A stretch of 64,000 nucleotides of DNA from Stenocarpella maydis (lineage: Eukaryota; Ascomycota; Sordariomycetes; Diaporthales; Diaporthaceae), in the NCBI GenBank assembly GCA_002270565.1, contig NQMI01000112.1:90997-154996 (forward strand), written 5' to 3'. The position numbers and the translations under genes were made by a program. The first letter of the stretch is position 1. Every line of letters begins with the position of its first letter. The notes beneath the pieces were generated by a model. It was given only the letters and a program-made list of their open reading frames with translations. It was not told the DNA's origin and searched no databases. Below, one piece after another: positions 30,718 through 57,419 of this stretch.

Positions 30718-30752
30718 CTTCCTCTCTCTCTCTCTCTCTCTTTCTTCCCTTC
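30718..30752. repeat. CT microsatellite
   Basis: Run of CT dinucleotides (CTCTCTCTCTCTCT) with a short CTTT/CCTT continuation. Confidence 0.8.
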
Positions 30753-31799: not shown

Positions 31800-32160
31800 G
31801 GTTCTTAATGGCTTATCTTTATATATCCCAGCTTTATTTATTTTCATTTAAGGCTTATCTTGGTCTTTCTAGACCCTATTTAGCTTCATTTAAGTCCTAT
31901 CTTGCTATATTTAGGCCATATTAAGGTCCATCCGAGTCCTATCCTTGTCTATTAAGGTCCTATCCTTAGGTATCTAGGTCATATCCAGCTCCATATAGGG
32001 CCTATCCTCCTCTATTTAGGTATTATTTAGCTTTATATGAGTTAAAAATCCATCAGTCCAGCTCAGTTCCATCTCAGTTTTAGCTTCATTCTAGCTTAAT
32101 TCCATCTTAGTTCCATCTTAATTCCAGCTCCATTCTAGCTTAATTCCAACTTCCATATAA
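31800..32160. repeat. degenerate short tandem repeats
   Basis: Two neighbouring arrays: about 25-bp units of the type TTAGGTCCTATCCTTG at 31840-32040, and about 12-bp units of the type TTCCATCTTAG/TTCTAGCTTAA at 32060-32155. They follow the 3' end of the minus-strand copia coding remnant, where the 3' untranslated part or LTR of the element would be expected. Confidence 0.6.
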
Positions 32161-33421: not shown

Positions 33422-33662
33422 TCTGGGGGGTATCTGTTTTTAAGCTCTAGGGGTAGTTGTATAATAATTATATGGGTTAGTATATCTTCAGCTTGGGTGT
33501 AGGCTTATGTAATATCCCGTAGTTTGCCTTAGCATCTATATAATTAAATGAGTGTTAGCCCTAGGGCTAGAATTAGTCTCTGGCTTATCCTCTGGATGGT
33601 TGGGGCTTATATTAGTATCATATGTTTCTCTTTATCCCTAAAGCCCTATATAATTAGCCTGT
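33422..33662. repeat. first copy of a duplicated copia segment beside an N gap
   Basis: About 240 bp nearly identical to 33882-34121; differences are mostly transitions. It ends at the N gap. Confidence 0.85.
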
Positions 33663-33881
33663 NNNNNNNNNNNNNNNNNNNNNNNNNNNNNNNNNNNNNN
33701 NNNNNNNNNNNNNNNNNNNNNNNNNNNNNNNNNNNNNNNNNNNNNNNNNNNNNNNNNNNNNNNNNNNNNNNNNNNNNNNNNNNNNNNNNNNNNNNNNNNN
33801 NNNNNNNNNNNNNNNNNNNNNNNNNNNNNNNNNNNNNNNNNNNNNNNNNNNNNNNNNNNNNNNNNNNNNNNNNNNNNNNNN
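33663..33881. other. assembly gap (219 N)
   Basis: Run of N. The sequence on its right repeats the sequence that begins 241 bp to its left, so the gap joins two copies of the same repeat. Confidence 0.99.
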
Positions 33882-34121
33882 TCTGGGGGGTATCTATCCC
33901 TAAGCTCCAGGGGTAGTTATATAATAATTATACGGGTTAGTACATCTTTAGCTTGGGTATAGGCTTGTATAATGTCCTGTAGTTTGCCTTGGTATCTATA
34001 TGATTGAATGAGTATTAGCCCTAGGGCTAGAATCAGTCTCTAGCTTATTCTCTAGATGGTTGGGGTTTATATTAGTATTATATGTTTCTCTTTATCCCTA
34101 AAGCCCTATACAACTAGCCTT
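33882..34121. repeat. second copy of the duplicated copia segment
   Basis: Begins TCTGGGGGGTATCT directly after the gap, as does the copy at 33422. It differs from that copy mainly by C/T and G/A changes. Confidence 0.85.
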
Positions 34122-35772
34122 AATTTCTTAATCAGCTTAGTTAACCTATTCTTAACTTCTCATATTATTTGTATGTTAAAGATTCTCAGATATCTGTATA
34201 TCTTTAGGTTATATTTTATAAATTTAAATATATCTTTATTAGCTAGAGCATTAATCTTAAGGGCATTAGATTCTTTAAATGGCTTGCCTAGGCTAGTAAT
34301 AATATTGTCTTCCCTCAGCTTAATGGCTAGATTGTATAAGTTCCTTTCTTTTTGGGTTAAGAAAGTAGTTGCTGGTAGTTATATAGTTAATAGATATGTG
34401 TATTGTGTGGTTGCTCTCCTGGGTCTGCCGTACTGATTTGGCTGCACCTGGGTAGCTTCCTTCCTAGGTCTGCCTCTCTTTCTAGCTTGGGTTGGCTGTT
34501 GTATGGTGATAGCTTCTTATATATCTAGGTTATCCCGTACAGCTGGTTTAGCTGTATGAAGGTATGGTTTGGTATGTGTAGCCCGGAATTGTACAGGTCT
34601 GTTCACCATACTGATTATTATAGTGTGCCTATGGATAGCTTCCAGCTTGTATAGTTCTCTCTAGCCTTTATTTTTTTTTAGATAAGGACTTTGCTTTAGA
34701 GGGGTAAGGATAGTATAGCATGGGTATCTAGTCCATTCCTAGTGTTAATTATATAGCTAACCTTAATTTCTATATAGATGGTTTAAAATATCTTTATAGC
34801 CTTTTATATAGCTCTTGCCCTTTGGGTAATATCTAGAGATAGTAGAGATTCATATAAGACTTAAGGGTAGATACTAAATACTAGGAGGGTTGGTATAAGT
34901 CTACTTAGTCTAGCTGTATTATTTAGAGCCTTAATTGCTATCTATAGGATTATCTTATTATCTATAGCTTTATTAATCTCTATATAAAGGATTTTTTATA
35001 CCTTTTTTAGAGGTTCATATAATTACTTAACTTTCCCTATAGCCCAGTATACCTCTACTGGTATCTTTTTACATAAGATCCCCATAATCTTTACATTTAT
35101 ATAGAACTCCTCTAATATAAAGTTTGTCCCTAGGTTGTATATAATGTAGTTAGGTGGGCTAATATAGGTGCAGATCTAGCATTTATAGAGTATATCCTAG
35201 GTATCTTATACAGATATAAATCTAAGGAATGTTGCTACTTAGAAGTTTATATTTATATTAATTATATATAAGGCATTCTTCTCTCCAAATTATATAATAT
35301 TAATTATCACTTTATAAATAAAGTAGCTTTTATCCTTAATAGAGAATTTAAATTATCTTAGGGCTGGGTTGTATATCTAGTAGTAGTGGTAGAATTTCTT
35401 AATTCTCTTTAGAATGGCTTTCTTAATATTATTATGCCCTGTACTTCTGAGAAGTCTGTATAGTTTCTCTGTATGGGGATGGCTAAAGCGCTTATGAAGT
35501 TGCTATAGCTGAGGTTTGGTAAGGAAGGCTCTGGCCTTTGCACGGTCTGAGAGTATGTCTGGGAAGACTATATGGTATTAATCCTCTTGGATTTGCAATC
35601 TTCTGTAGTACCCTATAAAGATTCATACTTTATTATATAATAGGTTATATGGCCTCCCTATATAATTATGTTCCTTCCTCTATTTCTTATGGAAGTTGGC
35701 TATAGCTTAGAGGTCAATTAGCCCGTTATAGACTATTTGGGTTGGAGGTAGGTTGTATGGAGTACCATCTAT

Positions 35773-36141
35773 TGTTCCGGGGTCTAGGGGAACCGGCATG
35801 TTTCGGAATCCGGAGGAAAACCAGCCTTGGCATCCCCCCCCCCNTATATTATTTTTGAAAAATTTCTAGTCCTATAGAATTAATCTTTTTATACCCTATA
35901 AACTTATATCTATCTAATATATATATATATATATACTGTAAAAATTTTTCTTATGCCCTTCTCTTCTGCCCTCCCCTCTTAGCACCCTTTATTCCCCTTA
36001 TAACTCTCTTATTGCATTAGGGGCTCCTCTTCTTCCCTTCCACACTCCTCTTGAGGTAGTTGCTTGATTAGGGCTCTGGCAGAACGTGTGCCTTTTTGTG
36101 TGTGTGGAGGTTTTGTCCTCACCCCCTCTGGCCCGTTTTTA
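35773..36141. repeat. LTR-like repeat, copy A (RIP-mutated, split by one N)
   Basis: Starts TGTTCCGGGGTCTAGG and matches copy B at 37443 over its length. The first 70 bp, up to the single N at 35844, are identical to copy B; the part after the N carries many C-to-T/G-to-A changes and lacks about 30 bp. It ends at TA where copy B has CA. It borders the copia remnant, whose gag and protease part should lie here. Confidence 0.7.
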
Positions 36142-37442
36142 ATATTAAGGGAGTTTTGAGATTTAACTAGAATATAGTATAGCTAGCATTCTAATACTAT
36201 TACTTAAGTACCCATCCTTATAAGTTATATTACTTATAGGTTATCTAAAGAAGTAATTCTATATATCTTTATAGAAATTAATTCTAAGTAATGTTTTCCT
36301 TAAGGTACTTTATATACTTAGTATAAATGCATAAGGCCTATAAGATTTATTTATATTTAGCATTTTTAGGGTATACCCTTACTATATCTTTTCTTCTTTT
36401 AGTTTCCTTCTTAGGGTATAAAGCTACCTATTTAAAAGTTCTATTAGCTATAGTAACTTCTATAATGTTGGTTCTAGGGGCTAAAAGAGTAGTCCGTCCT
36501 AGGTATATTTGCAATTCCTTCTATCATGCCTAAGGTACATATAGGTCTGGTAAGAGGAGTTCTGTTAGTCCTTGCAGAGGGTTAGAAGGTTTTTTCATTA
36601 CCCTATTATAAGTATCCTTACCCTTTAGAGGTATTCTTAGGGAACCAGTTAGCGCCTTCCGTTTCATTATAGTAAATAGAACAGCTATTATTAAAGCATT
36701 CTGTCCAGTTAAGAGAGGTATAGTTATTTTTTGCTTATAGAGGTTCCTTTATTAGAGGGACAAGTTACTACCTTACCTTATCCTTCTAGTATTTCTTATA
36801 CTAGGAGTCCTTATACTAACTAAAGTATAAGCTATTATATTATTCTTCCTTATTAGGGTTATAAAGTCCTTATCCTTTATTAAGGTATTATTTAAGGTAT
36901 ACTTAACATTAGTTATATATTACCACTCTATAAATATAATACTTATTCTTAAGCTCTTATTATTACTTTAAGTAAGGAGGAGATCGCAAGGCTATACTAA
37001 TTTATTATAATTCTCTTATAGCAGTATTAGCTTATTTAAGGCTTTCTAGTATAGGCTTCTAATCCTTATTTTTCTTTAAAGCCCTATATTCTAATATAAA
37101 GTATCCTATTTTATTATAATTATAGTACTTTCTGAGAATAATTTGTGCTATAAAATAGCATTCAGTTCAGCGTATGTATTTTTTTTCGACAGGGTTGCAA
37201 TATGGTGCTCTAAGGCAAATTAGGACAATTAACAATGGTCTGGACAACTTTATATTGAATTAAGTTGGGCTTCTGTAAGCCCTCCTTGTATACCCTCCGA
37301 CATCATCTCACCCGCGGGCACGCTATGGTGGGCTCTGGTGCAAGTTTGCAAAAGCCGGAAAATTCGCCCTTCCAACACACCATCTTTGGTTCCAAGCAAC
37401 TAGCCAACCATAGCCCTAGTAATGCCCAAATTAAGTACATAT
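36142..37442. other. AT-rich sequence between the LTR-like repeats
   Basis: About 1.3 kb, strongly AT-rich. One 68-codon frame (36327-36533) is hydrophobic and unrecognised; no element coding region is readable. Confidence 0.45.
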
Positions 37443-37843
37443 TGTTCCGGGGTCTAGGGGAACCGGCATGTTTCGGAATCCGGAGGAAAACCAGCCTTGG
37501 CATCCCCCCCCCCCCTCCCTCCAAGGCTATAAGAAGGGGCCTTCCTGCGTTGCTTTTGAGAAATTTCTAGTCCTAGAGAATCAATCTTTTTATACCCTGT
37601 GAATTTGTATCTGTCAGATATATACGTGTGTACTGTGAAACTATTTCTTGTGCCCTCTTTTTCTGCCTCTCCTTTTTGGCACCCTCTATTCCCCTTATAA
37701 CTCTCCTATCGCGTCAGGGGCTCCTCTTCTTGCCTTCCACGCTCCTCTTGGGGTGGTTGCTTGATCAGGGCTCTGGCAGAACGTGTGCCTTTTTGTGTGT
37801 GTGGAGGTTTTGTCCTCTCGCTCTCCCTCTTGGCCCGTTTTCA
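37443..37843. repeat. LTR-like repeat, copy B (little mutated)
   Basis: 401 bp beginning TGTTCC and ending TTTTCA, the TG...CA ends of an LTR. The interior has C tracts and a TATACCCTG box. The flanks (CATAT left, ATAAG right) do not form a clear target duplication. GC content is much higher than in copy A, so it was probably not hit by RIP or arrived later. Confidence 0.65.
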
Positions 37844-40285
37844 ATAAGTGCTATATTCCTAAGGAGATAGATACAACTAAACTTGCCCTTCCCCCTCCTC
37901 CCTCTATTCATTCTTTCTTCCCCCTTTCTTATATAAGAATCCCTCCTTACTACTTCGCTACTCTAAAGCTACTTGTAACTTACGCCTTTATAGCAGGCCC
38001 CTTTAGTATAGTCTTAGGGTAAAACCTTTAATATATAATCTTCCTTAGCACTATTTGGGCTGCCTGTTATATGCTAGTTGCTTCTTTATAGCGCCCCCAT
38101 AGGGCCTTTAGGTGCCTTAGCCTAGGGTAGCATACTGGATCCTGACACTACTTCCTGGTCCTGGCCACTTCCTGGTACCCTACGTTAAAATAAATATAAA
38201 TTTTTATTATAACTATGCTTATTCCTACTTAGAACTAGAAATCTGATTATTGGTACTATTTAATATTAGTACTACTAGCTTGTAAGTCCTAAGCTATAAA
38301 AATACTATAATTCACTATATGTGATAGCCATGATTGGAAGGCGGTGGTGATATGGGCCCTTGATGAGTACTTCTTGCTTAGCTGCAGTAGCGGGCTTGGC
38401 GAGGAGGTTACTTTGCAGGGGTCTATACTATACTGGCCTCCGTTGCCCTTCTGGCCGTAATAAGCCCTGGAAAGCCTGCATCCTTCCGCCAACTGCGATG
38501 CAAACAGAGCTCACTACCTAGGTAGTTAGATAGCCTTGGGGCAAACGGCCCGATCATGCTTACGCGCCGCAGCTGCTGGCAATAAATATTCTCCACGTCA
38601 TTCGACAGTGCGGCGCCACTGTGTTAGGTCTGCTCGCCGTTGCGTTGGCCCACGACCCAGGCAGCCACTTCTTGGCCTCAGCTGCTACTACCGCTGCCCT
38701 TACATTCTGCCAGACCAAGTGCGGAGAGTCTGTGCTCTCCCTGGACCATTTCCAGCGCCGCGCAAGTCTCCTGGAAACGGTTGATGCTCGTGGCCCTCGG
38801 GCGGACTTGTTGGGTTGGGCCCCAGGCGTGGGCTGCGCTTGGGAGAAATTCATGTTGGTCATGTGTCACGCGAGACCCGCTTTGGCGTGATTCAAACCGG
38901 GGTTGACATGGTGATTAACCAAGGGCCCGAGCTGAGGCTCAGTCTGCGCATAAATTAGTGGTTTTTATAACCTGAAGTAATGCTGGAGGATTGGGCGATG
39001 TCATCTTCAAAAATCGGCCAGAAAGGGGCTTCTATGACTCGTCTTTCGCTGAGACAAGATGATATATCATCACACTGCCTTCCAAAGCTGCTTTCACCTC
39101 GTCTGTTTACCTAGGTACATTTACGTTAGGAGCTAGCCGTGAACATTTGATGTAAGTACTGAGCTGGCTGCACTAAATCCTCTCTCAGGTCAGTAGGATT
39201 CTGCCCCCTGATTTTCCTCCAACATCAACACTGCTGGATCGCATTGTGGGGTATCAAATGACAAATGCCACGCTTAACTAGTCGATCCGAGCTGCAGTCC
39301 GAGCCTGCGTGTTAAGGTCGTCACCTTGTCATCAACTATTGATAGCCACCATAAAAACCCATCGGAACGTCGAGATTGGCACTCGCAACCCCATCGACAT
39401 GATGGTTGACATGCTGCATGTCAGCACTTGCAGAAGTGGCGTCAGTGGTGCTTTCAAGGTTGACTAGGGGCTACATTAGCTGCAGAGCATCCTTTCAGAA
39501 GCGATTGTTAAGCTTCTGGGTCCCAGAAACCATTTTGAATTTTTGATTTATCAAAACATCAGTTGCGCCATTGGAGTAACTTTCAATAACCGGGTGTCTG
39601 GTGGTAGGCGTCGTTTTCATCCATCCCAGGCTCATTGCACATTTGGTCTTCAGATCGGATGCAGAGCAACGTGTTGACTCTTTCATGAAGAGAGGCATGG
39701 ATCTAGACTTCCATGACGGCCCAACGGGGAAGCTTTGTGCCAAGGGTTTCTGCCTGTTCCAGGCCCATCAAAGGATTCGCTAACAACCCAGAATGGATGG
39801 ATTAGTGCAGCTAGAGTGGTTTGTGCGAGCTGATAATCTATGCATATGGTACCCAGGGTACTTGTGAGATCCGGTGACTTAGTGTAAGTCTCTGACATCC
39901 AGGCCATGGCGGGGAAGAATCGATGGCGAAGTAGTTTGTTTATTGCTCCTGATGCGCTACGATACAGGCAGTTATTTGTGCTGCAGCTGGGTGTGGGTGC
40001 CCACACAGCTCTTATTTGACCTGTTTGACAAGCAGTTGCTGAGAGTGGGACATTTCCTAAGCAATGTTGTAGATGGCTTCCATTCCTTCTAGCACACCAA
40101 AGCACGAATACATTTACCCCTTCTTTGCACCCCGTACGCTTTACCAGCTTCCATACCACTGTGTCAAACACCTAAGGTCTATGAGGCTACTTCTCTGCAG
40201 CTGAAGTCTGGGCTCCTGCGTTTCGCATAGAGTTCACTCGGAGAATAACCAATGGTCCAATAGTTTCGTAAACGTTCAGACAAAG
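37844..40285. other. intergenic upstream of the PKS, no supported gene
   Basis: AT-rich until about 38300, then normal composition. It holds one copy of a short dispersed repeat near 38143-38174. Open frames at 38536-38890 and 39495-40171 have no convincing family features. The last few hundred bases are the presumed PKS promoter; no TATA box or factor site is obvious. Confidence 0.5.
38143..38174 (-). repeat. short dispersed repeat, copy 1 (least mutated)
   Basis: Reverse complement reads GGTACCAGGAAGTGG then CCAGGACCAGGAAGTAG. It matches copies at 49631-49664 and 63472-63504, which carry C-to-T/G-to-A changes. Confidence 0.7.
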
Positions 40286-43200
40286 ATGTCTCGGTTGCCT
40301 CGCATCCCAGAACTACTCGCCCGCCATGCAGAAGAACGCGGCCACAAGGTGGCTTTCTCGGCACCCGGTCGTGAAATTGTACGTCTCTGTTATGAAAACC
40401 CCTTCCTTCAACTGGAGTCCACCAGCGAGATAAAACAGAGTCTTGCATAACGTTTGGCATCCTGACCTGCCATCGCACTCACAAAGGGTCTTCAATTCAC
40501 GTTCGTCGCTAACTATTTGTGCCTGCGATAGACCTACAGCGACCTAGAGACGCGAACGAGGCGCAAAGCTATTCATCTCGTGCGCTCTGGTGTCGGGAGG
40601 GGCCACTTCGTAGCCCTTGTCCTGGGCAGAGGCCTGGAGGCCGTCGAAAGCATACTCGCAATCACTCGTGCGGGTGCGGTGGGAGTCCCTCTGGATCCAC
40701 GGTCGCCTCCTGCCGAATTATCCAATGTTCTCAACCACAGTGGGGCGAAAGCCATAATCACCGACAGCCGCCACTTGAGCCAGGTGCAAGCTGCTACTGA
40801 AGGAGGATCACGGATGGTCATGGTTGTGTCGTCGTCAGACGAGGCCATCGCTGACGGCTTGGATCTCGTGCGGTATCAAGATCGGACACAAGACGAAGAG
40901 TGCACGACCTCGAGCCCTGACATAGACGAAGACCTTGGAGATGAGGCAGCCTTTCTGCACTACACCTCTGGGACGACGAGCTCCCCCAAAGGGGTCTTGT
41001 CCAGCCAGCAGAACTGGTTATGGTCTGCTCACAGCTTCGCCTCACTTTTCGGTTTGACCCAAGATGACCAGTTCTTCTGGCCTCTCCCTCTCTTCCACTG
41101 CCTTGGCCATGCGCTGTGCATCATGGCGACGGTGGCCGTCGGCGCCAGCGCTCATCTTCCCGATCCCAACGATACCCTGCTCGACAGCCTCTTCACCGAA
41201 GAGGCGCTGACAGCCACAATCATCGTCGGCGCGCCAGCAACTTACCATGAGATCATCGCCGCAGCACCGCCACTCAAGGCCTCGCTGGCCTTGCCAGCCC
41301 TACGAGTATGCATGGTTGCAGGTTCGTCGGCACCTGCGTCCCTGAGCGCCCAGGTGCAGGAGTTATTCGGCGTCCCGCTGCTGAACAACTATGGGTGCAC
41401 GGAGGCGTGTGGTGCGATTGCTGTGAACAAGCCAGGCGATCCCTATCGCGAAGGTTCAATCAGGACGATAGTCCCAGGAGTGGAACTGCAGGTTACCAGC
41501 CCCGACGGAAACGGACTTCATGGCGATCACGAGCAGGGCGAGGTCTGGATCCGCAGCCCCGGGCTCATGATCAAGTACTACAAAGAGGACGAGACACCGT
41601 TCACCGCGGAGGGCTGGTTCGCCACAGGAGACATCGGGGTCTTTTCGAATAATGGGACTGATCTCAGATTAGTCGGGCGCAAGAAAGAGCTGATCGTCAG
41701 GGGTGGTGAGAACATCCAGCCTGGCGAGCTCGAGCGAGTCCTGCTCCAGTGTCCTGGTGTTTCCGACGTGGTGGTGGCCGGGATACCACATCGCGTGCTT
41801 GGAGAAACCCCCGCCGCATTCCTCGTGAGGGAGAAGGGTGGTGGTGGAACCGATGGAGGAAGTACTGTCGACATTGATCCAAAACAACTGCTCGCCGCGT
41901 GCAGGAAAGTGCTGCCTGACTACAAGGTACCCACAGGTGAGCAACGTCGCTTTCACTTTCATCATGCCCGTCATGAGGAGTTGACATTGGCTCATGATGT
42001 TGGATGCGCTGCTGACTTTAACACCCACAGCCTTTTACGAAATCGACGACGTGCCCAGGACCTTGTTGGGCAAGCCACGACGGGCGGCTGTTAGGTCTTA
42101 CACCAGCAGGCCTTTGACTGCTCAGTCAAAATTATTGTCGAGAGAGTCAATTGAGACTTTGGTTCTCACCGAAACTGCCGGTGTGTGTGTTACAGACGCC
42201 CGGACAGGGGAGTCAAGCTCAGAATGGCTTCGTGGCCACTTTGATCAGCCGTTCAGCCTCTTGGGTCTCACATCGCTTGCTGGAGTAGTCCTTCGGGATC
42301 GCCTCTCGAGTCTCACCGGCTTGGATCTCCCCACCACACTCATCTTTGACTATCCTACTCCGGAGTCTGTGAGCACCTATATCTACCGGCGGCTAATCGA
42401 GCAGAGAACACCGCCCACTACAGTCTCAGAGTCTCCAACTGTACCCAACAGTGTTGAGCCGATTGCTATTGTTTCTATGGCCTGTCGTTATCCTGGAGGT
42501 ATCTCATCCCCGGAGGACTTATGGAGGGTTGTATCTGAGGGGGTCGATGTGACCTCCGAATTCCCAGATGATGTCAGTCATTACTCGTCTTCTCTTGCCC
42601 TTCGCTCCAACTTTCGTACAATACAGGCAGCAGTGGGCATGGCATTCTAACCACTTATTTGTTTTTTCTCTTTGGAATTCTCTTTACTGACAAAAACCAC
42701 AGCGAGGCTGGAACCTCGACGCCCTATATAATCCGGACCCCGACGCACCCGGCACGTCCACAACGCGGCGTGGCGGCTTCCTCGAGAACATGGCTGACTT
42801 CGACGCTGGACTCTTCGGTATGTCGCCCCGGGAGGCCCTCGCCACAGATCCGCAACAGAGGCTGTTGCTAGAGACGACATGGGAGTTGGCCGAGCGAGGC
42901 GGCATTGCCCCGTCATCGCTGCGCGGGAGCCAGACAGGCGTCTTTGTGGGCATTATGTACGGCGATTATGGAGATAACGGCAAGGACAACCCAGGTATGT
43001 TGCACAAGCCTTTACCCTTTCAGATCGAGGAAGTGAGTGGCTGACAATTTGTCGATAGAGTTTGAAGCACATGCTGGGCTGGGATCATCTGGCAGTCTAG
43101 TTAGCGGACGCATATCCTACTGTTTCGTGAGTGTCCTGAGAGTGGAGTTTCTGGATGAGACAAGGCTGACTAGGGATGATAGGGCCTGCACGGTCCGTCA

Positions 43201-46200
43201 ATATGCATCCACACTGGCTGTTCATCCTCGTTGGTTGGAATCCACCTAGCAGCCGCATCCCTCCGAAGCGGAGAGTCGTCGCTCGCCATCGCAGGCGGAG
43301 TCACAACCATGGCAACACCGTATTCCTTCATATCGTTCAGCAAGCGAAGGGGCCTCTCCCCAGACGGCCGCTGCCGCGCGTACTCCAGCGATGCAGCCGG
43401 CACTGGCTGGTCCGAAGGCGTGGGCCTCGTGCTCCTCGAACGACTTCAAGACGCAAGGCGCAACGGACATCGTGTGCTCGGCATAGTGCGTGGCTCTGCC
43501 GTAAACTCGGATGGGGCGTCGAACGGGCTCACGGCCCCGAGCGGGCCTGCTCAGCAACAAGTCATACAGACGGCACTGGCTCAGTCGATGCTTTCGCCAG
43601 CTGATGTTGACGTGGTCGAGGGTCATGGGACGGCCACACCTCTGGGAGATCCTATCGAGGTTCAGGCATTGATTTCAGCCTATGGCAATGGTGATGGTGG
43701 CGTTCGACGACCGATTTCGAGACCGTTGCTGCTAGGCTCGGTTAAGTCCAAGTACGTCTGCCTGTATCGCATAGCACCTACAGTAACATCGTGTGGCTGA
43801 CTTGAACTGCAACAGTATCGGCCACACACAAGCTGCAGCGGGGGTTGCGAGTATCATCAAAATGGTACAGGCGATTCAACATGGCGTGGCTCCAGCGTCA
43901 TTGCATATCGGTGAGCCCTCGCGGCATATCGAGTGGGGAGGGAGCGGTGTTGAGCTCCTCACCCAGGCAAAGCAGTGGCCCATTATCCCCTTCGACGCCG
44001 ATGAGGTCCCGAGACCAAGGCGTGCTGCAGTTTCATCCTTCGGGATAGGTGGCACAAACGCACACGTGATTCTGGAGCAGCCCTTCGAGCACGAGAATGG
44101 AAGAACGGGCGACTTTGGCCTTTTGACGCCTCCAACAAGTCCGATGACGAGAGGACTGCCATTTCCGTGGGTTATTTCAGGCACAGACGAGGCTGCTCTG
44201 CGCGGACAGGCACGGGCTTTGCTGGCATCCAATATGATCCTCAGCCAGGATCCTGCGGATGTTTCGTTCTCGCTCGCAACCACACGGTCTGTTCTTCGAC
44301 ACAGAGCTGCGATAGTTCCCGATACTGGAGGCAAGTATGAAGCCGCACTTATGGCCTTAGCCCAGGATGATCCACACCCTGATGTTGTGATGGCATTGCC
44401 TAATGAACCAGCGAGTACCACGAGACCACGTCTGGCGTTTCTTTTCCCAGGTCAGGGAGGCCGGCTGCCTGGGAAGGCTGCCCTGGAGGAGCTTTGTGCT
44501 GCCTTTCCTATCTTCTCGGCTACGTTTCAAGAGGCTTGCAGTGAAATCGACCACCACTTCGGACGTCTCCTGAAGTCTATTCTAAGCAACAGCGAGGGAA
44601 AGGGGACAAACCGCACTGACCTTGACCAGGCCTTCCTCTTCTGTTTCGAAATAGCAATGTTCCGCCTCCTCGAATCATTCAACATCCAGCCCGATTTTGT
44701 GTCCGGTCACTCCCTTGGGGAGATCACAGCAGCTCATGTTTCCGGAGCTCTGTCCCTTCGCGAAGCCGCCACCATCGTGGCCGCCAGAGGCAAGCTCATG
44801 GCTGCGCTGCCGAGCAACGGTGCCATGGTGAGCATCTGTGCTAGCGAGAAAGAGGTTGCCGAGGAGATATCAAGAAAACAGGGTCAGCTCCGGGGCGATA
44901 AGGTGACCATCGCAGCCGTGAATTCGCGAAAGTCGGTCGTCATATCTGGGAATGCCGACAGCGTCATGGCTGTTGCAGAAAGGTTTGTCAGCCGAGGACG
45001 GCGAGTGACCCGATTGCGAAACGTTCGACACGCCTTTCATTCGCCCATGATGGATCCCATACTAGGCGACCTGCAAGATCAACTCTCGTCATTGATGGAA
45101 GTTGGGATCGAGGCGACAATCCCCGTCGTTTCCACCGTTACGGGCGCCCGAGTTGTAGCATCTGAGCTCAGGTCCGCGGCACACTGGACTCGCCATGTGC
45201 GCCAACCTGTTCGCTTTTCCGACGCCGTCAGCGAGATCAAAAATGAAGGCGTTTCTGTCCTTGTTGAAGTCGGACCATCCGCAGTCATTTCTACGCATGT
45301 GCCGGGCACCATCGCCGCGCCCAGCCAGATCAACAAGCTGCTGGACGCACTTGGCAAACTCTGGGTGCAGGGCGTGCAGGTCGACTGGCGAACTGTCTTC
45401 AGAGACACTAACGCAAAAGTTGTTGATCTTCCAGTGTACGCCTTCCAGAGGCGTAGGTACTGGCTTGACCCACCAAAACCTGCGAAGGCACCACATGAAG
45501 ACATTGGGACTTTGGGGCATGGTATACTCCTCCATGCCACTTCTATGCCTGGCACAGGGAATATTATCTGCTCCGGGACCTTGTCGGCGGCCAGGCAGCC
45601 TTGGATGCTTGACCATGTGGTAGGTGGGCAAGTAATTGTTCCTGCGGCGGCATTCGTTGAACTGGTGTTGCGAGCCAGCCAGGAATGTACTGGGGCAAAA
45701 GAGTCCATGATACTCAACGAGTTGTCGTTTACAGCACCGCTGGCATTGGATACAGAGGAAGATGCTATCATACAGATCCAAGTACTCATCAAAGAGCCAG
45801 ACGAACACGGAATCCGGCCTGTCGACGTACATTCACGCCCCAATTGTGTCCCATCACAGAGCGAATGGACACTGCACGCCACAGGGACCCTCAAGTTGGC
45901 TTCTCAGGCCACCGTCATCACCGATGAAGCGATCAAGGACCTCGAGGATACCAGGGATCAGAATGCAGACCAAGAGGATGGAAAATTGGTAGACGTGTCC
46001 GGAGCATACAGTACCCTGGCCGATGTAGGCATCAGCTATGGGCCATCTTTTCGACGCGTGAGTGGCGTTTGGCGCCCGCACTCTGACAGCCAGGTGAACA
46101 ACGAGCTGCAAGCGTCCATAGACAGACTCAAGACCCACGGCGAGATGTACAACCTACATCCGGCCCTGCTCGATGCCGCGATCCATGCCCCCCTGCTCGC

Positions 46201-49069
46201 AGCACCCGATATAGGCGCCGGCGATATCCGGCTACCATTCTTGGTCCGAGGCGTGAGAGTTTACTCGCGCTCCGGTTCTGGCCCATTGATGGCACAGATA
46301 CGTCAACTCGAAGACGATCGATTTTCTGTTACACTCACAGACCAGTCGACTGGTGCACTACTGGCTGAGGTGTCCGAAGTCGCCACCCGCGCCCGGATTC
46401 GACCTCCTGCTGCTGGCCCTACACCCGGTGGGCTCTACAGCTTGAAATGGGATGAGTTTGCTCAGAACACGCCCAGTGAAGGCTTGGCCGAGCTCTCGGG
46501 TAAGAAGGACGACATATACCGCATTCATTGCAATTTCGACGATCCTGTAACGGCGGAGAGAGGTGTGACCGAGAAAAGTGTCCACAACACAGTCGCCGAG
46601 GTGCTTAGCATGATACAGAAGTGGAGCGCCAGCAAAGCATACTCGGGCGGCCGGCTGGTCATTGTGACTGAGAATGCGACGGGAGAAATCAATCCGAAAC
46701 TCGCTTCTGCCGCCGTATGGGGCTTTGTGCGCTCGGCGCAGGCTGAGCTGAGCGGGGGTCGGATCGTTCTGGTTGACCTGGACGGATCAACAGAATCAGA
46801 GAGGGCTCTGCTGTCGGCTCTCGCCTCCAAAGAGGAGACTGTCACAATCCGGAGGGGCATAATTATGACTCCCAGGTTGAGAAAAGTTCACCTCGCCTCT
46901 CAGTACCTAACTTCATTCAAGCCATCAGCTGCTCTTTCATCACTCGATGTCAGCGGAACCGTCCTGATCACTGGGGGAACAGGTGGACTCGGCGCCCTGA
47001 TCAGTCGGCACATCGCCCACGTCTACGGAGCCAAACATTTGCTCCTAGTCAGTCGATCCGGCATCAACGCAACCAATGGGAAAAAGCTCAGAGACGAGCT
47101 ATCCAGCGCAAACACGACCGTGGACATCGAGGCATGCGATTGTGGCGACCGCGAGCAGCTGGCCGGGATGTTGGCAAGCAGCACAGGCCGAGGTCGCCGG
47201 CCGATCAGCGCTATAATCCACTGTGCAGGCGTCGTCGACGACGCAGTCCTCAGCTCCCAGAGCCCAGATCGAGTATCGCGTGTCCTCGGCCCAAAGGTCG
47301 ACGCGGCCTGGCACCTGCACGAGCTCGCGCCAGCCACAGTACGGTCGTTCGTGCTGTTCTCGTCTTTTGTGGGAATCCTAGGGAACGAGGGCCAGGCCGC
47401 ATACTCGGCAGGAAACGCCTTTCTGGACGCACTGGCCCGGTTGCGTGTTTCTCGCGGGCTGCCGGCCTTGTCGCTGGCGTGGGGCCCTTGGCTGAATGAG
47501 ACCGGAATGGCCGCCGAGAACAGGCTCAAGGCGCACAACCCCCGTCTGGGTAATGCGAGGCCGCTTGCAGACCAGCAAGGGCTGCAGTTGTTTGATATGG
47601 CCATGCAGGGTTCGACATCACCGCAACCAGTCATGGTCCCGCTCCTGGTTGAGGGACCACTCCCACTGATTTCGGAGGGCCAAGGCATGACAACCGGAGT
47701 GAAAGCATCTCGCCAGGGCGGCTCAGCAGTATGGCAGCAGAAGCTTGCAAAGCTACCACCCGAACTTCGTGATGAAGAACTGTTGAGCGTGGTCAGAGGC
47801 GAGATCGCTTCAGTGCTGGGATACCAGGACCAAGGTCTACCGGACCGACCGCTGGCGGAACTTGGCTTCGACTCCTCCACCTCAGTCTTGCTCAGCAACA
47901 GGTTGAGGAGGCTCACTGGGCTGCTCGACCTCCCTGTGACTCTGGCACTCGATTACGAGACTCTCTCCGCACTGGGCCAGTACCTGTCTGGTCGGCTTGA
48001 TCTTGCTCAGCTGGATCTTCAACCAGAAGCCAAGACCGAGGGTCGGCACTCGACGACTGAAGCGGCGGTTGCATTTGCACCAACAGAAGCCCCGACCAGC
48101 AAGAATGGCAAGCAAGACGGCATGCTCAGAACCACCTACGAGAAACAGCAACTCGAGAGTGAACAAGTCGATGCTGGGGCATTCCGAGGACTGACCGCAC
48201 TTTACAAGCACTTGTGCCACCTCCAGCAGTACAAGGCAGCAGCAGGGCTATTGACATGCGCATCGTACGCACTGCCGAGGTTCAAAGTTGGGTCGGATCT
48301 GGCAAGCTATGCTGCACCACCTCAGCGTCTCGCCACAGGGCACTCGGATCTGACATTACCTCCAATACCTTTGGTATTGCTCCCCTCATTCCTCCCGCCC
48401 ATCGTTGCCGGGGGAATTAGGTGCAGCGCTTACAGCGCCATGGCAGCCGAGATGAACGGAGAGATGGAGGTCTTCGAGCTCCCTCATCCAGAAGGGATGG
48501 CTGTGCCCGAAGACCTTGAGACACTCGCTGCTGTGCATGTGGGCACAATCCAGGAGCACTTTTCCGGCCAAATCATACTCGCTGGCTACTCTGCCGGCGG
48601 CGTAGTCGCACACGCTGTGGCAAGCAAATTGATGGGAGACCACCAAACCACGTTGAAGCAGGAGGTCCAGGTCGCGGGCCTGATCCTCATCGATACTTAC
48701 ATGAGCATGGAGGGGGCACAGCATCCGGAGTGGTTGGACGCGCTGCCTGCTGAGGCCCTGACGACGCGTGACGGGGGCCTGTTGCGAATGGTTGCGGACC
48801 CCGACCTGGCGCTGGCCAAGGTTGGGGGATATTTTAGGATATTGCTGGGCTCCGAGAAATGGGAGCTTCCCGCTGACCTACCAACGCTGCTCCTGCGCCC
48901 CCTTTGCCCCACGTCAAATATGCCAACAAACGGAGAGGAGTGGCGTCCATCTTGGCCGCGAGCCGACGTCACTATTGACGTGCCTGGAAATCACCTGGAA
49001 CTTCTTGAGGGACGGTGTGCATCAATATCGACGATAAGGATTCGAAAATGGATAACAGAGGCTTTGTAG
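40286..49069 (+). CDS. bacterial-type modular type I PKS: AMP-ligase-ACP-KS-AT-DH-KR-ACP-TE
   Basis: Seven exons: 40286-40378, 40532-41936, 42031-42572, 42703-42994, 43059-43126, 43183-43751, 43816-49069; 8223 nt, 2740 residues, introns 56-153 nt. The start is ATG 40286 ([19 protein letters not shown]). Domains: acyl/aryl-AMP ligase about 1-520 ([11 protein letters not shown] at 175-185; GWFATGD); ACP1 about 540-620 (GLTSL, Ser581); KS about 641-1070 (Cys813 in [24 protein letters not shown]); AT (GHSLGE Ser1289; HAFHS about 1395, malonyl-CoA type); DH (HxxxG with His1590; LLDAAIH with Asp1776); KR (GGTGGLG 2043-2049; VDD 2130-2132; Tyr2186); ACP2 (GFDSS, Ser2343); TE (GYSAGG, Ser2582; NHLEL). 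The ligase would activate a carboxylic acid starter, load ACP1, add one malonyl unit, reduce and dehydrate it, and release the acid. Fungal PKSs rarely have this order; it resembles actinobacterial loading modules. Product and starter are unknown. Confidence 0.93.
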
Positions 49070-52705: not shown

Positions 52706-55526
52706 GGTATGCGAGGCCGGGTTGCTGTAGGCTCGGTGCTCCGATGACGCCAGAAAGTAAAGGGAAAGTGGGTATCAAAAAAGGGGGGTATCACGTATCA
52801 AGTGCTTGGGTCAGAGGAAATGCGACAAGGACGAAGTCGTATTTGTGCTGAATCGGAGGCTGAGAGAGGAAACCAAAGAGAAAGAGCCGCTTGCTGTGGT
52901 TGGTGTTTGCTGACTGAAGGCTTGTGAGATGGTTGAGAGCCATTTAGACGAAGGTGATGGGACAACAAATCATTTTGACTGGTGGTGTGGTTTTCCTTGT
53001 TTGTTGGTTTTCCTGGGGTGGCAGAAACACGAATCGAAGTAAAGGTGGTTGTTGAATGGCTGGCTCGGTTGTTTTGGTGATGGGATTACGGACTGCTGTT
53101 TCTTGCCTTGTCTTGCCGGAGCGGGTTGAGGGAGTATTGTCGAAAACGGGCGGTCTCGGTGCTCTAGAGTCGGACGTGGGCAGAGTCTTGGTGGAGAGAA
53201 GGGGAGAGGGAGCAGCGCAGGGCAGGCTGGACGGGGGTCTGTGGTGGTTTTCTGGCGGTGGCGAGACCAGGAGGCGGGCTGGACTCACCATGACGGACAG
53301 GCAGTGGGCGATGGCCAGAACACCCACGAAAAGGAAGGCCGTGGCCCGCCTGGAAGGGGTGGGACCACCCTGGCACACCACTGTCGGACGATTGGCCGTT
53401 TCCGGGCCACTCACAACCGCTCCTGGCAGCCTGGTCGCCAGCAGAAGGCGCTAGTGGTGGCACATGCCGCCAATTATGCAGCTTATTTGGCTTGTGCAGT
53501 CGAGGTTACATTTCGAGCTGCAGGAGCTGGTGTGTGCAGGACCCGCGCTAGTCCGAGGTGGGCAAAGGGCCCAGATGTCCTTGCCTTGCCGATGAAACCC
53601 GGCCTACCCCAACACCAAGACAGAGGCCTGGGGAGAGGATACCCAACAGGGAATCAGGAATGAATACACTGCAAAAATCCGTTATTATTCATTAACCTTC
53701 CATGCCAGTCCACAGCATATTGCTCACTTCAAACCCATGCAGTATCCATAATAATGAGTAAGTGAGCGAGCGACTGACAACTGGTCAAGCCTTCCCAAGG
53801 CTGTCTACCTACCCGTCAGCCACACCATCTCAACCACAAGCTGACATAACTGACTGACGCCCAACGATCGCCCCCTTCGCTGTCTGTCCTCTGTTTCTCA
53901 GGCTGTTCGGGGATGGATGCTGTCCTGACCGATGCGAGGGGCGCGAGGCAATGCGAGATGGCGCAAGCCACCCAATAAACAGTTTCCAATAAGCCAACCA
54001 GGCCAGGACCTGCTCAGCCCTGCCATAGCATCAACATCAGCGTCAGCATCACGAACTCGAAGTGGGCCCAGTTGACTGGAAAATGGCCCCCAACAGGCAG
54101 ACCGATCAGCCATGTTCCTGCCAGCTGCACATCTCGAGAGCCAGCCGGCAGACAGCTGTGGTCCATGTCTGCCTTTCTACACTTTTGAGGCAGGCTCATG
54201 CAGGCTTACTCAGGATTGACAGCTCCGGGATTGTGTGCAGTCTGGCAGTCCAGCCAAGTCCACTGAGACTTGTTGTCAGCTGCTCCTGGTCTCCCATGCC
54301 TGCCTGCTCCATCCACGCTCATCCTCGTGCCTCACCAGGGCTCATCACGCAGTTGAGTTTCTTGTCTCCTGGCTGGTCACACTGTGGTCCTCTACTGCGT
54401 CCTGCTGGCACGGTCTGGTCGAGCTTGTCTCTCCTCGGCCTTGTTGCCATTCTGGACATCGTGCCCGGCACCTGGAGCCTGCATGTCGGCATATCAAGGC
54501 TTGTTCGTCGCCAGAGAACCCACCAAAAGCCGTCAGCAACTCCGGAAGACACTTGGACTGCTTCCTCCCAGACCCACCAGGCCGGCCAACAAGCACAACA
54601 GCATTCGGATAGAGGGAGGGAGAGGCTTCATCTCCGTCCTCGAAGCCATAGCATCGTGTACTGGAACCCAGCTCACACTTGGCCTACTGCAGGAAGTCGT
54701 CTGCCGTCCACATCGTGTTGACTCATGCGGCCTCCCTCACAAGGACTAGGCAGCTGCAAGTCATCTCGTTCCTGCGAGCCCGGCCTCAGGTGCCCTGTTC
54801 CAACAAACCCTCCCGCCAGCTAGCTAGCCTTCTACTGCACCTCGTAGTAGGCAGTGTCGCCAGCTGGAGGACCAAGACTCTGCCATTCACCTGTTCCTCC
54901 TCTGCTAGGGTCAGTTGAGGCTGAATTGCTAAGCACCCCCCAAGACCCCGGTCACCAGGGCCCGTCCCCCCAGTCTTGTTCTTGCTCAACTGCTCCTCCA
55001 TATCCCGCATCTGACTCTTTTTCTGAACTGCATTTCCACTATCATTTGCATTGCCAGCAAGCCAGGTGGCCTTCTTCCTTGATTTCTTGTTCCTTGGATT
55101 TTCTAGGAATATTCCCTTCCCAAGTCTTTGCCGCCGCATTTAAGTCCTCGTACACCCGCCCGGTCCAAAACCATCCGGTCAACCACCGGAACCAATCCTC
55201 GGGAGCACCCGCTACTAGGACCTCACCTTATCTTGAGCTTGGAGCCTGTGCCTGTGCCTGTGCCGGTGCCGACGAGACCCAACGGACAGTCCAAGGAAGG
55301 TGTTTTGTGTGTCATAGGCAACCGTCTCTCTGCTCGCCATCGTTTCCCATGCCCTAGGACTAGGCACCCGAGCCGCGCATAACCGCATACGTACCTCCTG
55401 ACCCATGAGCTTTCCTGCGTGACTCCTCTCCAGCCCGACCTGGTCGCCTCGTCCACATCATCGCCGGCAGCGCCAGTGTCCCAGGCTGCCCGTGGCGAAG
55501 CCGGCGAGACCGGGTCGCCCTTCGCC
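52706..55526. other. long divergent intergenic region
   Basis: About 2.8 kb between the minus-strand hypothetical gene and the plus-strand kinase. Open frames on both strands are short or low-complexity (for example 53414-52944 minus). Pyrimidine-rich stretches occur close to both gene starts. Long 5' leaders for both genes would account for much of it. No recognisable RNA gene. Confidence 0.5.
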
Positions 55527-57419
55527 ATGAGAAGCTTCCACGTCGAGCCGCCCTCGGAGGTGGCGACAGAGGAGAAGACTGAGCCCTACTCCCAGAGCGA
55601 GATCGAGGCCCGCCTCAGGAGCTTCCAGGAGCAGAAGGAGATCAGTGAGGCCATCGCCGCCGAGAACCATGCGATCCACCTGGATGACCTGGCTGTCCCC
55701 AAGGATAAAGACATTCGCATCCTCGTACGGCCCCTTACCAGGGCGCGGTCTGTGAGCCCTGGCAATCTCGACAGCTGTGAGTGGCTGCAGTTGACGGCCG
55801 AGGTCGCCGAGCCGAAACAGCCTGAGCAGAAGGTCCTCGCCGTCACGCAGACGAGCAGAGACATCAAGTTCTCCGTGCGCATCCCTGGGGAGCAGCTGGA
55901 AAATGACACGAGGCCTCCCCTGTGGTGCGAGCTCTACTACGACCCAGCCAGCGACAACCAGATATTCCTCAACCGGTCCGGAATCCCATTGTTCCTGTCC
56001 AGGGTATCCCAGCTACCACCTGCCAGCCCGGGCATTGAGTATACCATCAACCCCCATACCACCAAGGCCCTGATCCCGGGGACATGGAGAATCAAGGTCA
56101 GGAACATCAACGTCCTTGACTTCAGAATCGTCGAAAAGCGCCCCGCAATCCTGAGGTCTTCCCTGAGCCTGTCGGCATCGAACGAGTCCCTCACCAGCCT
56201 GCTCAACTCGTCAGGGAAACGGAGCCTTACGGCCGATGACACCGCGTCCTCCCCTGAGAAGCGACTGCGCGCCGATGAATCCATGGTCCGGAGTGACGCA
56301 AGAAATGATGATGGTGTGGTAATGTTTATGAGACCAGGAAGCGCCACCAACCCACTCGTCTTCCCGCTCCCCTCGGGGGAGAAGGGAAAGGAGCTCACCA
56401 CCACCAACGGCAACCCCCTGCTCGAGCTCGAGGACGGCGATACTGCTGAGATTCCCGGCGCCGAGGTTGACGTTGACCAGTACACGATCAAGAAGATCGG
56501 CCCCATCGCGTCGACGAGCCTGAGTGCTGTGGCCATGGGTGAATTCTCCCGCGAACCCGACAGCATCATTACGGTCAAGGTGCTCAAGACCCGGCTGAAC
56601 CAGAAGGCGCTGGCCACGGCAAAACCACAAGACGCAGAGCGCAACGTCATCCGCCAGGCTGACATCTGGCTGCGCGAGTTTCTCAACCACGAGGTGCTGG
56701 ACCACAAGTCGATCCCGCGCTTGTTTGGTGGCGACGCGAGGTATCTGTCGCTGTACATGGAGTACATCGACGCCAAGGATCTTTCGGCAAGAGGCACATG
56801 GCAAGACCCTCAGACTACCCTGTTCCTTGGAACCCAGCAGGACTCTGTGCGCATCCTCCGAGACGTCGCGGGTGCGCTAGACTACATGCACAGCCGTAAT
56901 ATGGTCCACAACGATATCAAGCCGGGGAACATCCTCTTTAATCGGGAGAGGGGGGCTGTTCTCTGCGACTACGGCATGATTACCGATATCCACGCCAACC
57001 AGGAGAGGATAGGCGGCACACCATTCTACATCTGCCCCGAATTTGTCGGCCAGAAGCTCCGCGGCCAGCCTGCCGACGTATGGGCCCTGGGCGTGACGAT
57101 GTTGTATGTCCTCGGCAAGATCGGTCTCCCGGACGCCCGAGGTAATAAGAATCACCCCCGCCACCTGTACTGGATGATTGCATACGTCAACACGGCACCG
57201 CAACATCAGAGGCAACTAGCAAACTTCGACGGGCACACTGCTGCCCAGAAAATGCAGGTCTGGCTCAACGAGATCCACGAGGCGAAGGCGCGCCTGGACC
57301 CAAACAACAAAGTCGAGAGGCTCGTTGCGGCCATGTTGGTCCCGAATCCAAAACAGAGGATCACGATGCGCCAGGCCATGCTGGAGCTGTCGCGGATACC
57401 GGTGGAGAAGCAAGAATAA
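55527..57419 (+). CDS. protein kinase with variant catalytic motifs (HND, DYG)
   Basis: Ser/Thr protein kinase-like protein, 630 residues from the first ATG in frame at 55527 (MRSFHVEPPSEVATEE). The open frame extends upstream to at least 55419 without an ATG and with protein-like sequence, so a further 5' exon is possible. Residues about 60-220 form a beta-rich, possibly FHA-like region (IFLNRSGIPLFLS, then GTWRIKVRNINVLDFRIVE). A disordered linker follows. The kinase domain is about 320-620: ITVKVLK with the candidate ATP Lys, MVHNDIKPGNILF near 460 (HND in place of HRD), LCDYGM near 480 (DYG in place of DFG), GTPFYICPEF, and ADVWALGVTMLYVL. The catalytic Asp, the KPxN and the metal-binding Asp remain, so activity is plausible. 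The glycine loop is degenerate. Substrate unknown. Confidence 0.8.
   Translation: MRSFHVEPPSEVATEEKTEPYSQSEIEARLRSFQEQKEISEAIAAENHAIHLDDLAVPKDKDIRILVRPLTRARSVSPGNLDSCEWLQLTAEVAEPKQPEQKVLAVTQTSRDIKFSVRIPGEQLENDTRPPLWCELYYDPASDNQIFLNRSGIPLFLSRVSQLPPASPGIEYTINPHTTKALIPGTWRIKVRNINVLDFRIVEKRPAILRSSLSLSASNESLTSLLNSSGKRSLTADDTASSPEKRLRADESMVRSDARNDDGVVMFMRPGSATNPLVFPLPSGEKGKELTTTNGNPLLELEDGDTAEIPGAEVDVDQYTIKKIGPIASTSLSAVAMGEFSREPDSIITVKVLKTRLNQKALATAKPQDAERNVIRQADIWLREFLNHEVLDHKSIPRLFGGDARYLSLYMEYIDAKDLSARGTWQDPQTTLFLGTQQDSVRILRDVAGALDYMHSRNMVHNDIKPGNILFNRERGAVLCDYGMITDIHANQERIGGTPFYICPEFVGQKLRGQPADVWALGVTMLYVLGKIGLPDARGNKNHPRHLYWMIAYVNTAPQHQRQLANFDGHTAAQKMQVWLNEIHEAKARLDPNNKVERLVAAMLVPNPKQRITMRQAMLELSRIPVEKQE

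What the first reader, a model, noticed from the sequence alone, without database searches (positions are those of the whole stretch)
40286..49069. Single-module PKS with bacterial-type architecture and its own acid-activating loading domain in a fungal genome
Seen: seven spliced exons give AMP-ligase, ACP, KS, AT, DH, KR, ACP, TE in one 2740-residue chain. The KS start ([20 protein letters not shown], with [18 protein letters not shown] after it) has the style of actinobacterial modular PKS modules. Known: rapamycin/FK506-type bacterial assembly lines begin with a CoA-ligase-like loading domain and an ACP; ordinary fungal iterative PKSs begin with KS or SAT. Inference: an ancient bacterial gene or module was acquired and then fitted with introns.
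Basis: partly seen in the sequence, partly recalled or inferred. Interest (0 to 1): 0.88.

Follow-up and report, generated by a model that had tools for sequence, protein, structure and literature searches.

The report
Fungal flavonoid-type synthase of bacterial origin
This fungus carries one large gene, acquired whole long ago from soil bacteria of the actinobacterial kind, for an enzyme of the already described FnsA/CfoA family, which makes plant-like flavonoid precursors (chalcone, naringenin) from simple aromatic acids.

Summary
In detail: seven exons (40286-49069) with GT-AG introns join into one 2740-residue AMP-ligase/T-KS-AT-DH-KR-ACP-TE chain with intact catalytic motifs. The interpretation (bacterial gene acquired, introns added) is also supported. 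Actinobacterial proteins with the same domain order align over the whole chain, and in full-length trees the fungal enzymes sit at the tip of a bacterial ladder. A, KS, AT, DH, KR and ACP-TE each give the same nesting. AU tests reject keeping the bacteria together without the fungi. One KS-only test (of two) did not reject ordinary fungal ancestry. I read the gene as an FnsA/CfoA-like chalcone/naringenin synthase, a new member of a known kind; its product is untested. A bacterial origin of fungal NRPS-PKS hybrids, Streptomyces included, was already proposed in print (2019). Newer, as far as my searches go: domain-by-domain evidence, the closest bacterial grade, a KS signature of the fungal clade, and a halogenase gene beside 4 of 6 examined bacterial homologues.

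The parts
40286..49069 (+). whole gene, seven exons, 2740-aa AMP-ligase/T-KS-AT-DH-KR-ACP-TE synthase (FnsA/CfoA-like)
   Evidence: spliced translation, Pfam, full-length alignments, trees
40286..40378 (+). exon 1 (residues 1-31)
40532..41936 (+). exon 2 (most of the AMP-ligase domain)
42031..42572 (+). exon 3 (end of AMP-ligase, T domain, start of KS)
42703..42994 (+). exon 4 (KS)
43059..43126 (+). exon 5 (KS, 68 nt)
43183..43751 (+). exon 6 (KS with the catalytic Cys motif HTGCSSS)
43816..49069 (+). exon 7 (end of KS, AT, DH, KR, ACP, TE), 5254 nt without intron
40319..42074 (+). AMP-ligase (adenylation) domain, residues 12-514; motifs YTSGTT, NNYGCTE, GK
   Evidence: Pfam PF00501/PF13193, motifs
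42240..42383 (+). first carrier (T) domain, residues 570-617; Ser581 in LGLTSLAG is the counterpart of FnsA Ser607
   Evidence: Pfam PF00550, peptide in PMC9606254, motifs
42456..44062 (+). ketosynthase, residues 642-1072, over exons 3-7
   Evidence: Pfam, Cys/His/His motifs
44438..45313 (+). acyltransferase, residues 1198-1489, GHSLG and HAFH motifs (HAFH: malonyl-type, recalled)
   Evidence: Pfam, motifs
45518..46390 (+). dehydratase, residues 1558-1848, [11 protein letters not shown] and [11 protein letters not shown]
   Evidence: Pfam, motifs
46544..47491 (+). ketoreductase with its structural Rossmann half, residues 1900-2215, GGTGGLG
   Evidence: Pfam, motifs
47789..47986 (+). second carrier protein, residues 2315-2380, LGFDSS
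   Evidence: Pfam, motifs
48407..49024 (+). thioesterase, residues 2521-2726, GYSAGG and [10 protein letters not shown]
   Evidence: Pfam, motifs

Best explanation
It is an FnsA/CfoA-type fungal chalcone (naringenin) synthase, inherited from one ancient transfer of the complete gene from an actinobacterial lineage and later given introns. Proposed working: the N-terminal AMP-ligase adenylates a free aromatic acid (p-coumaric, p-hydroxybenzoic, or a benzoic or cinnamic acid) and loads it on the first carrier (Ser581). The KS and malonyl-type AT extend it with three malonyl units, or four when the starter is a benzoate, in which case KR and DH act in the first round to make the cinnamoyl double bond. 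A Claisen cyclisation, with or without the TE, releases the chalcone. Shown here: gene model, domains, intact motifs, family placement, bacterial nesting of the domains. Inferred from the family: starter, number of rounds, product, and whether the gene is active.
For: Same one-chain architecture as FnsA. 55% full-length identity to the A. candidus protein named chalcone synthase cfoA (P0129), 53-55% to Neopestalotiopsis/Pestalotiopsis P0130/P0131, and 63-71% to Diaporthe proteins P0121, P0122 and P0124. P0130 matches the FnsA T-domain peptide printed in the paper in 19 of 20 letters, the query in 14 of 20 (my count). The query's Diaporthe group is sister to the clade holding P0129, P0130 and P0131 with full SH-aLRT support. 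Catalytic motifs are present in A, T, KS, AT, DH, KR, ACP and TE. No pathway genes were recognised among ten ORFs around it; the paper says the same of fnsA. Bacterial origin: segment trees; full-length tree; p-AU 1.9e-47 and 9.9e-109 against bacterial groups without the fungi; p-AU 7.3e-70 and 6.7e-6 against either fungal branch alone with metaA; recoded tree 100/100 for all fungal and for fungal+metaA.
Against: No product, expression or RNA data. FnsA itself (PFICI_04360) was not among the 120 rows listed, so its place is inferred from P0130/P0131 and the printed peptide. The query group branches outside both named members, so its starter or product may differ; residues near the acid pocket differ from P0129-P0131 (pocket position recalled from 4CL work). 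The 96-row quick KS set did not reject one fungal KS clade (p 0.64). In the KS segment the all-fungal branch has support of only 34. The closest bacterial group (metaA) is unnamed; its bacterial nature rests on single long proteins, amino-acid make-up and its place in the tree.
Confidence: 0.8

Rival explanations
1. Same origin, different product: the query enzyme makes another aryl polyketide (styrylpyrone, phenyl-pyrone, cinnamoyl-type polyene acid or differently substituted chalcone) from another acid.
For: The query group lies outside the clade with P0129-P0131. Pocket-near residues differ (query FHCLGHAL, P0129 FHCIGHLL, P0131 FHILGHSL). FnsA's A domain also activates cinnamic and salicylic acid. 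HispS-like proteins lie in the same fungal KS group.
Against: Same full architecture incl. DH, KR and TE as FnsA and CfoA; the KS signature TGCSSS is shared with that clade only, among the rows read; the HispS-like rows lack DH, KR and TE.
Confidence: 0.2
2. Ordinary vertical fungal iterative PKS that only looks bacterial.
For: The 96-row quick KS test did not reject one clade of all fungal KSs (p-AU 0.64).
Against: The careful 53-row test rejects it (p-AU 0.0038). Six ordinary own-genome fungal KSs are closer to bacterial modular KSs (38.1%) than to this fungal clade (34.1%). A nests in bacteria against own-genome ligases; A, AT, DH, KR and ACP-TE all show the fungi inside bacterial rows, and bacteria hold the same full-length protein.
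Confidence: 0.02
3. Assembled inside fungi by joining a fungal or bacterial ligase to a separate bacterial PKS module.
For: Hybrids of other kinds in fungi have several ancestors (PMC6854747, abstract and passages).
Against: All six segments give one history, and the same domain set exists in Nonomuraea, Streptomyces and metagenomic bacteria, aligned end to end.
Confidence: 0.02
4. Transfer went from fungi to bacteria.
For: Direction is not observed, only inferred from nesting.
Against: Fungi sit at the tip of several successive bacterial branches. Making the bacterial ingroup one clade without fungi costs 408.7 log-likelihood units. The KS belongs to the style of a very large actinobacterial family.
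Confidence: 0.02
5. Bacterial contamination or a mis-assembled contig.
For: None beyond the bacterial look.
Against: Six spliceable introns, fungal-like amino-acid make-up (GARP 0.32 against 0.42-0.44 in the bacterial groups), fungal genes in the same window (HET, EMC1), and relatives in several Diaporthe species.
Confidence: 0.005

Closest known systems
FnsA, naringenin synthase of Pestalotiopsis fici (PFICI_04360; PMC9606254, parts 1-2 of 8 of the text and found passages read)
   Same: One chain A-T-KS-AT-DH-KR-ACP-TE; no pathway neighbours reported; T-domain motif GLTS(L/M)AGVVLR; same fungal clade by way of P0130/P0131.
   Different: Different species; about 54% identity judged from P0130/P0131; product and starter of the query untested.
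CfoA, 'chalcone synthase cfoA' of Aspergillus candidus (database name; chlorflavonin role recalled)
   Same: 55% identity over the full length, same Pfam domains, same KS signature TGCSSS.
   Different: No flavonoid tailoring gene among ten ORFs scanned in the window and no match to the bacterial halogenase there.
Actinobacterial single-module A-T-KS-AT-DH-KR-ACP-TE proteins (Streptomyces, Nonomuraea)
   Same: Co-linear over the whole chain, 36-43% identity for the Streptomyces rows; the fungal genes nest within this group.
   Different: No introns in the loci read; 4 of 6 examined loci have a flavin-dependent halogenase next door; products unknown to me.
Hispidin-synthase-like A-T-KS-AT-T proteins (P0140, P0141, P0146, P0150; 'HispS-like' is my label)
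   Same: Acid-activating A-T, related KS, within the same fungal group in the KS tree (support 90/91).
   Different: No DH, KR or TE by their listed Pfam domains; KS motif DAACSSS.
Fungal hybrid NPS7/PKS24 (Lawrence 2011, PMC3226686; abstract and two results sections read)
   Same: Also an NRPS-PKS order hybrid acquired by Ascomycota from bacteria.
   Different: Reported donor is Burkholderiales, not Actinomycetota; not compared by sequence here.
Rapamycin/FK506-type loading modules (recalled)
   Same: CoA-ligase-like loading domain plus carrier.
   Different: Those feed multi-module assembly lines; here one module and a TE.

Membership tests
FnsA/CfoA-type fungal naringenin/chalcone synthase | single chain A-T-KS-AT-DH-KR-ACP-TE | tested here: met
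   paper
FnsA/CfoA-type fungal naringenin/chalcone synthase | falls in one clade with CfoA and the Pestalotiopsis proteins close to FnsA | tested here: met
   (100); 99-100 in each of six segments; FnsA itself not in hand
FnsA/CfoA-type fungal naringenin/chalcone synthase | catalytic motifs of every domain intact | tested here: met
FnsA/CfoA-type fungal naringenin/chalcone synthase | stand-alone gene without recognised pathway neighbours (FnsA; CfoA is in a cluster, recalled) | tested here: inconclusive
   ten ORFs of the window scanned; the nearest with a Pfam match are a HET gene about 19 kb upstream and a kinase about 6 kb downstream; not all genes were modelled and the contig ends with the window
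FnsA/CfoA-type fungal naringenin/chalcone synthase | adenylates p-coumaric or p-hydroxybenzoic acid | not testable with these tools
   needs protein; pocket-near residues similar, not identical
FnsA/CfoA-type fungal naringenin/chalcone synthase | makes naringenin or a chalcone in a heterologous host | not testable with these tools
   needs expression
Actinobacterial modular PKS lineage (origin) | KS and A each nest among actinobacterial sequences | tested here: met
   dissent
Rapamycin/FK506-type assembly line | loading ligase feeding several extension modules | tested here: not met
   one module, then TE
HispS-type synthase | no DH, KR or TE | tested here: not met
   DH, KR and TE present
Ordinary fungal reducing or non-reducing iterative PKS | KS in the clade of ordinary fungal PKSs | tested here: not met
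   with 8 or 6 own-genome KSs as yardstick; inconclusive
Type III chalcone synthase | small homodimeric Chal_sti_synt protein without carrier domains (recalled) | tested here: not met
   no such domain in the protein
NPS7/PKS24 (Burkholderiales-derived) hybrid | A and KS nearest to Burkholderiales hybrids | not tested
   no sequence of it in hand; the nearest named bacterial rows listed here are actinobacterial

The most novel reading that the evidence does not exclude
Flavonoid synthesis by a type I PKS is a bacterial invention: an unrecognised actinobacterial family of single-chain chalcone-type synthases, often paired with a flavin-dependent halogenase, makes (halo)flavonoids or close aryl polyketides, and fungi received the finished enzyme once, without (or later losing) the halogenase partner at this locus. 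Plant and fungal flavonoids would then rest on two unrelated enzymes, one plant (type III) and one bacterial (type I).
Probability: 0.3. Interest if true: 0.68.

Novelty: new member of a known kind. Interest (0 to 1): 0.4.

Why it matters
It places a known fungal flavonoid enzyme in a Diaporthe-like genome, and gives a clean case of a finished 2700-residue megasynthase moving as one piece from actinobacteria to fungi. It names bacterial homologues that can be expressed to ask whether bacteria make chalcones with a type I PKS, and whether the neighbouring halogenase chlorinates them.

Tried and rejected
The first homologue search with the KS-AT region was swamped by multi-module Streptomyces proteins whose modules add up in the score; the search with the AMP-ligase region was the useful one. 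Each protein search lists only the best 120 rows. A search of 394 genomes of the class of the S. dysideae genome, cut at E 1e-150, found 6 A-T matches, S. dysideae itself included and best at 56% identity, so the metaA host was not identified. No chalcone isomerase of the Pfam type was found in the own genome, but its control rang nowhere, so that says nothing. No gene like the bacterial halogenase matched in the window, and only a weak 75-residue match in the own genome. Contamination, ordinary fungal ancestry, assembly inside fungi and reverse transfer were considered and set aside (see rivals). Counter-result: the 96-row KS test.

Rows chosen or left out: tree rows were picked by hand from the listed proteins, not all of them used. 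P0126 and P0132 (gapped or short) are in no tree; P0124 (cut N-terminus), P0134 (extra N-terminal part) and P0137 (no TE) are not in the full-length or segment trees. Of the Streptomyces same-architecture rows 22 entered and 17 entered; fun2 went in with 8 and then 5 rows; P0243 was left out. L095, L096 and L099 (short) were dropped from the A tree, in which the row L094 is the window's own gene and stops in locus rows read X. The 53-row KS set keeps the first rows of each group of the 96 and also drops L002, L008 (very long) and P0200. Groups for the AU tests were named after earlier trees had been seen.
Full report
What is there. Pfam gives AMP-binding, AMP-binding_C, carrier, KS, AT, DH, Rossmann half + KR, carrier, TE in that order. 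Motifs are intact: YTSGTT and the GK lysine motif in the ligase, LGLTSLAG and LGFDSS in the carriers, Cys/His/His in the KS, GHSLG and HAFH in the AT, HxxxGxxxxP and the DAAIH motif in the DH, GGTGGLG and the S-Y motif in the KR, GYSAGG and the late His in the TE (the meaning of the motifs is recalled). It is not a pseudogene by these signs. The A domain has no close paralogue in its own genome (next best 30% identity), while that genome gives 107 KS match segments, exon pieces and this gene's own included, in 53.5 Mb.

Which family. A search with the AMP-ligase region returned 1272 proteins, best 120 listed. The top rows are fungal: Diaporthe batatas, D. australafricana, D. vaccinii and D. 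citri, Discosia, Seiridium, Neoarthrinium, Pestalotiopsis and Neopestalotiopsis, and A. candidus 'chalcone synthase cfoA' (P0129). Full-length identities are 71.5% (P0124, from residue 126 on), 63.0% (P0121), 64.9% (P0122) and 55.3% (P0129). The host is therefore probably a Diaporthe or near relative (inference). The FnsA paper (PMC9606254; text parts 1-2 of 8 and found passages read) describes P. fici PFICI_04360 with exactly this domain order. It makes naringenin from p-coumaric or p-hydroxybenzoic acid, loads them on Ser607 of YADESFSHLGLTSMAGVVLR, and has neighbours judged unrelated. P0130 carries that peptide with 19 of 20 letters; the query has [20 protein letters not shown], 14 of 20 (my count). 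FnsA itself was not in my listing.

Neighbours. Ten ORFs of the window were scanned: SDR, HET, kinase, GH114, EMC1, one hit below its cut-off (E 0.003), and four without a hit; none is a known flavonoid gene. Genes of several exons were not modelled, and the contig ends with the window. The own genome holds one aromatic ammonia-lyase match, two type III PKS match segments, and no Pfam chalcone isomerase match, with an uninformative control.

Origin. Bacterial-type homologues align over nearly the whole chain in one piece: metagenomic P0136, P0138 and P0139 at 49.9-51.3%, Streptomyces rows at 36-43%. By segment, metaA is closer to the query (54% overall) than the second fungal branch fun2 is (45%). 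In trees of six segments cut from one 48-row alignment, 'fungal', 'fungal + metaA' and 'fungal + metaA + metaB' are each one side of a branch, with SH-aLRT 97-100, except 'all fungal' in the KS segment, which has only 34. The full-length tree of 45 rows shows the ladder: Streptomyces, then Nonomuraea (P0242, P0244, P0245), a MAG whose name is cut off at 'Pseudonocardiac' (P0241, support 81), metaB, metaA, then all fungi (names). Holding the bacterial ingroup together without the fungi costs 408.7 log-likelihood units, p-AU 1.9e-47; holding only the nearer bacteria together, p-AU 9.9e-109. Joining metaA to only one of the two fungal branches is rejected, p-AU 7.3e-70 and 6.7e-6, so one transfer is simplest. 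Four-state recoding of 2500 columns keeps 'all fungal', 'fungal + metaA' and the set up to Nonomuraea at 100/100, with 98.3/100 and 88/90 for the two steps between. These groups were named after earlier trees had been seen, which makes the p-values optimistic. Fun2 contains Discula destructiva and unnamed assembled rows; that the unnamed ones are fungal is inferred from amino-acid make-up and placement. MetaA has the make-up of Streptomyces (GARP 0.42, K/(K+R) 0.07), not of fungi (0.30-0.31, 0.30-0.34).

KS against ordinary fungal PKSs. The 96-row quick tree and the careful 53-row tree put the clade inside actinobacterial KSs; the ordinary fungal yardstick is 8 and 6 KSs of the own genome. The one-clade test for all fungal KSs gave p 0.64 on the quick tree and 0.0038 on the careful tree. 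The ordinary fungal rows are very long branches. Their mean identity is 34.1% to the FnsA-like fungi and 38.1% to bacterial modular KSs, the order expected if the fungal clade is derived from bacteria. The A-domain tree (105 rows) places the query inside bacterial, mostly actinobacterial, loading ligases, with metaA forming a grade next to the fungi.

Mechanism. By the published FnsA scheme, the A-T didomain selects and loads the acid and the PKS part extends it. With a benzoate starter the KR and DH are needed once to make the cinnamoyl unit (my reading of the chemistry); with p-coumarate they are idle. That KR and DH motifs are intact in this gene fits a benzoate-type starter at least as an option. 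The FnsA-like clade has xTGCSSS at the KS active site in the query and in 10 of 15 listed relatives (P0121-P0135); in the other five the motif is not readable in the model. The other rows that I could read (bacterial, fun2, HispS-like) have an Ala before the Cys. Whether this matters for the chalcone-type programme is unknown.

Bacterial context. Six loci with a full-length bacterial homologue were examined; in four (L009, L013, L018, L110) a flavin-dependent halogenase gene follows directly (Pfam Trp_halogenase 211-215 bits for three; L110 by 66% identity; positions). In L111 and L112 none was found in the stretch held (about 5 and 9 kb downstream). Six loci whose matched A-T belongs to other or larger PKSs (L010-L012, L014-L016), several cut by contig ends, gave none. 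A flavonoid-chlorinating halogenase, DklH of Frankia alni, is in print (PMC8539768; found passages), and the fungal product chlorflavonin is chlorinated (recalled). That makes the pairing worth a test, but a link is not shown.

Prior art. Lawrence 2011 (PMC3226686; abstract and two results sections) reported transfer of another hybrid from Burkholderiales. Theobald 2019 (PMC6854747; found passages) lists A. campestris 323099, the FnsA relative named in the FnsA paper, among rare NRPS-PKS hybrids, and states that Streptomyces hybrids are sister to hybrids of several fungal genera and could have been transferred. Schmitt and Lumbsch 2009 (PMC2636887; authors recalled) was seen only in a search listing. 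The word 'horizontal' does not occur in the main text of the FnsA paper. Nine searches of an open-licence library (at most 20 titles listed each) showed no listing that describes the actinobacterial same-architecture family or its halogenase pairing; subscription papers are not held, so this is weak.

Verdict. Observation confirmed, interpretation supported, but the enzyme is a new member of a known kind, and its bacterial ancestry had been suggested in general form. The most novel open point is on the bacterial side.

Noticed in passing
L009:18121-19635, L013:17809-19281, L018:18183-19727, L110:7733-9184: A flavin-dependent halogenase gene lies directly downstream of the bacterial full-length homologue in 4 of 6 loci examined; no match to it in the fungal window.
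   Followed up: partly
window 43183-43751 (KS residues 811-818): The FnsA-like fungal clade has TGCSSS where the bacterial, HispS-like and second fungal rows that I could read have (T/A/S)ACSSS or TACSAS: a clade signature at the KS active site.
   Followed up: partly
window about 26000-38000: AT-rich block (GC 31-41%) with TpA/ApT 1.15-1.48 in 2-kb steps, RIP-like by that index, directly upstream of the synthase gene; the second RIP index agrees in only three of the six steps.
   Followed up: partly
P0133 (PFICI_15331): P. fici seems to hold a second protein of this architecture beside the published FnsA (PFICI_04360).
   Followed up: no
P0142, P0144, P0145, P0147-P0149, P0153 with P0143: A second branch of the family with Discula destructiva, whose unnamed assembled members are listed as single proteins of about 2740 aa, perhaps from intronless genes.
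   Followed up: no
P0136-P0139: Unnamed metagenomic actinobacteria-like proteins are the closest relatives of the fungal members; their host is unknown.
   Followed up: partly
window 58389-59234 (-), 19149-20849 (+), 55383-57416 (+): GH114 hydrolase, HET-domain protein and a protein kinase in the same window.
   Followed up: no
G000:C310:132049-133575: Single aromatic ammonia-lyase match in the own genome, a possible source of cinnamic or coumaric acid.
   Followed up: no
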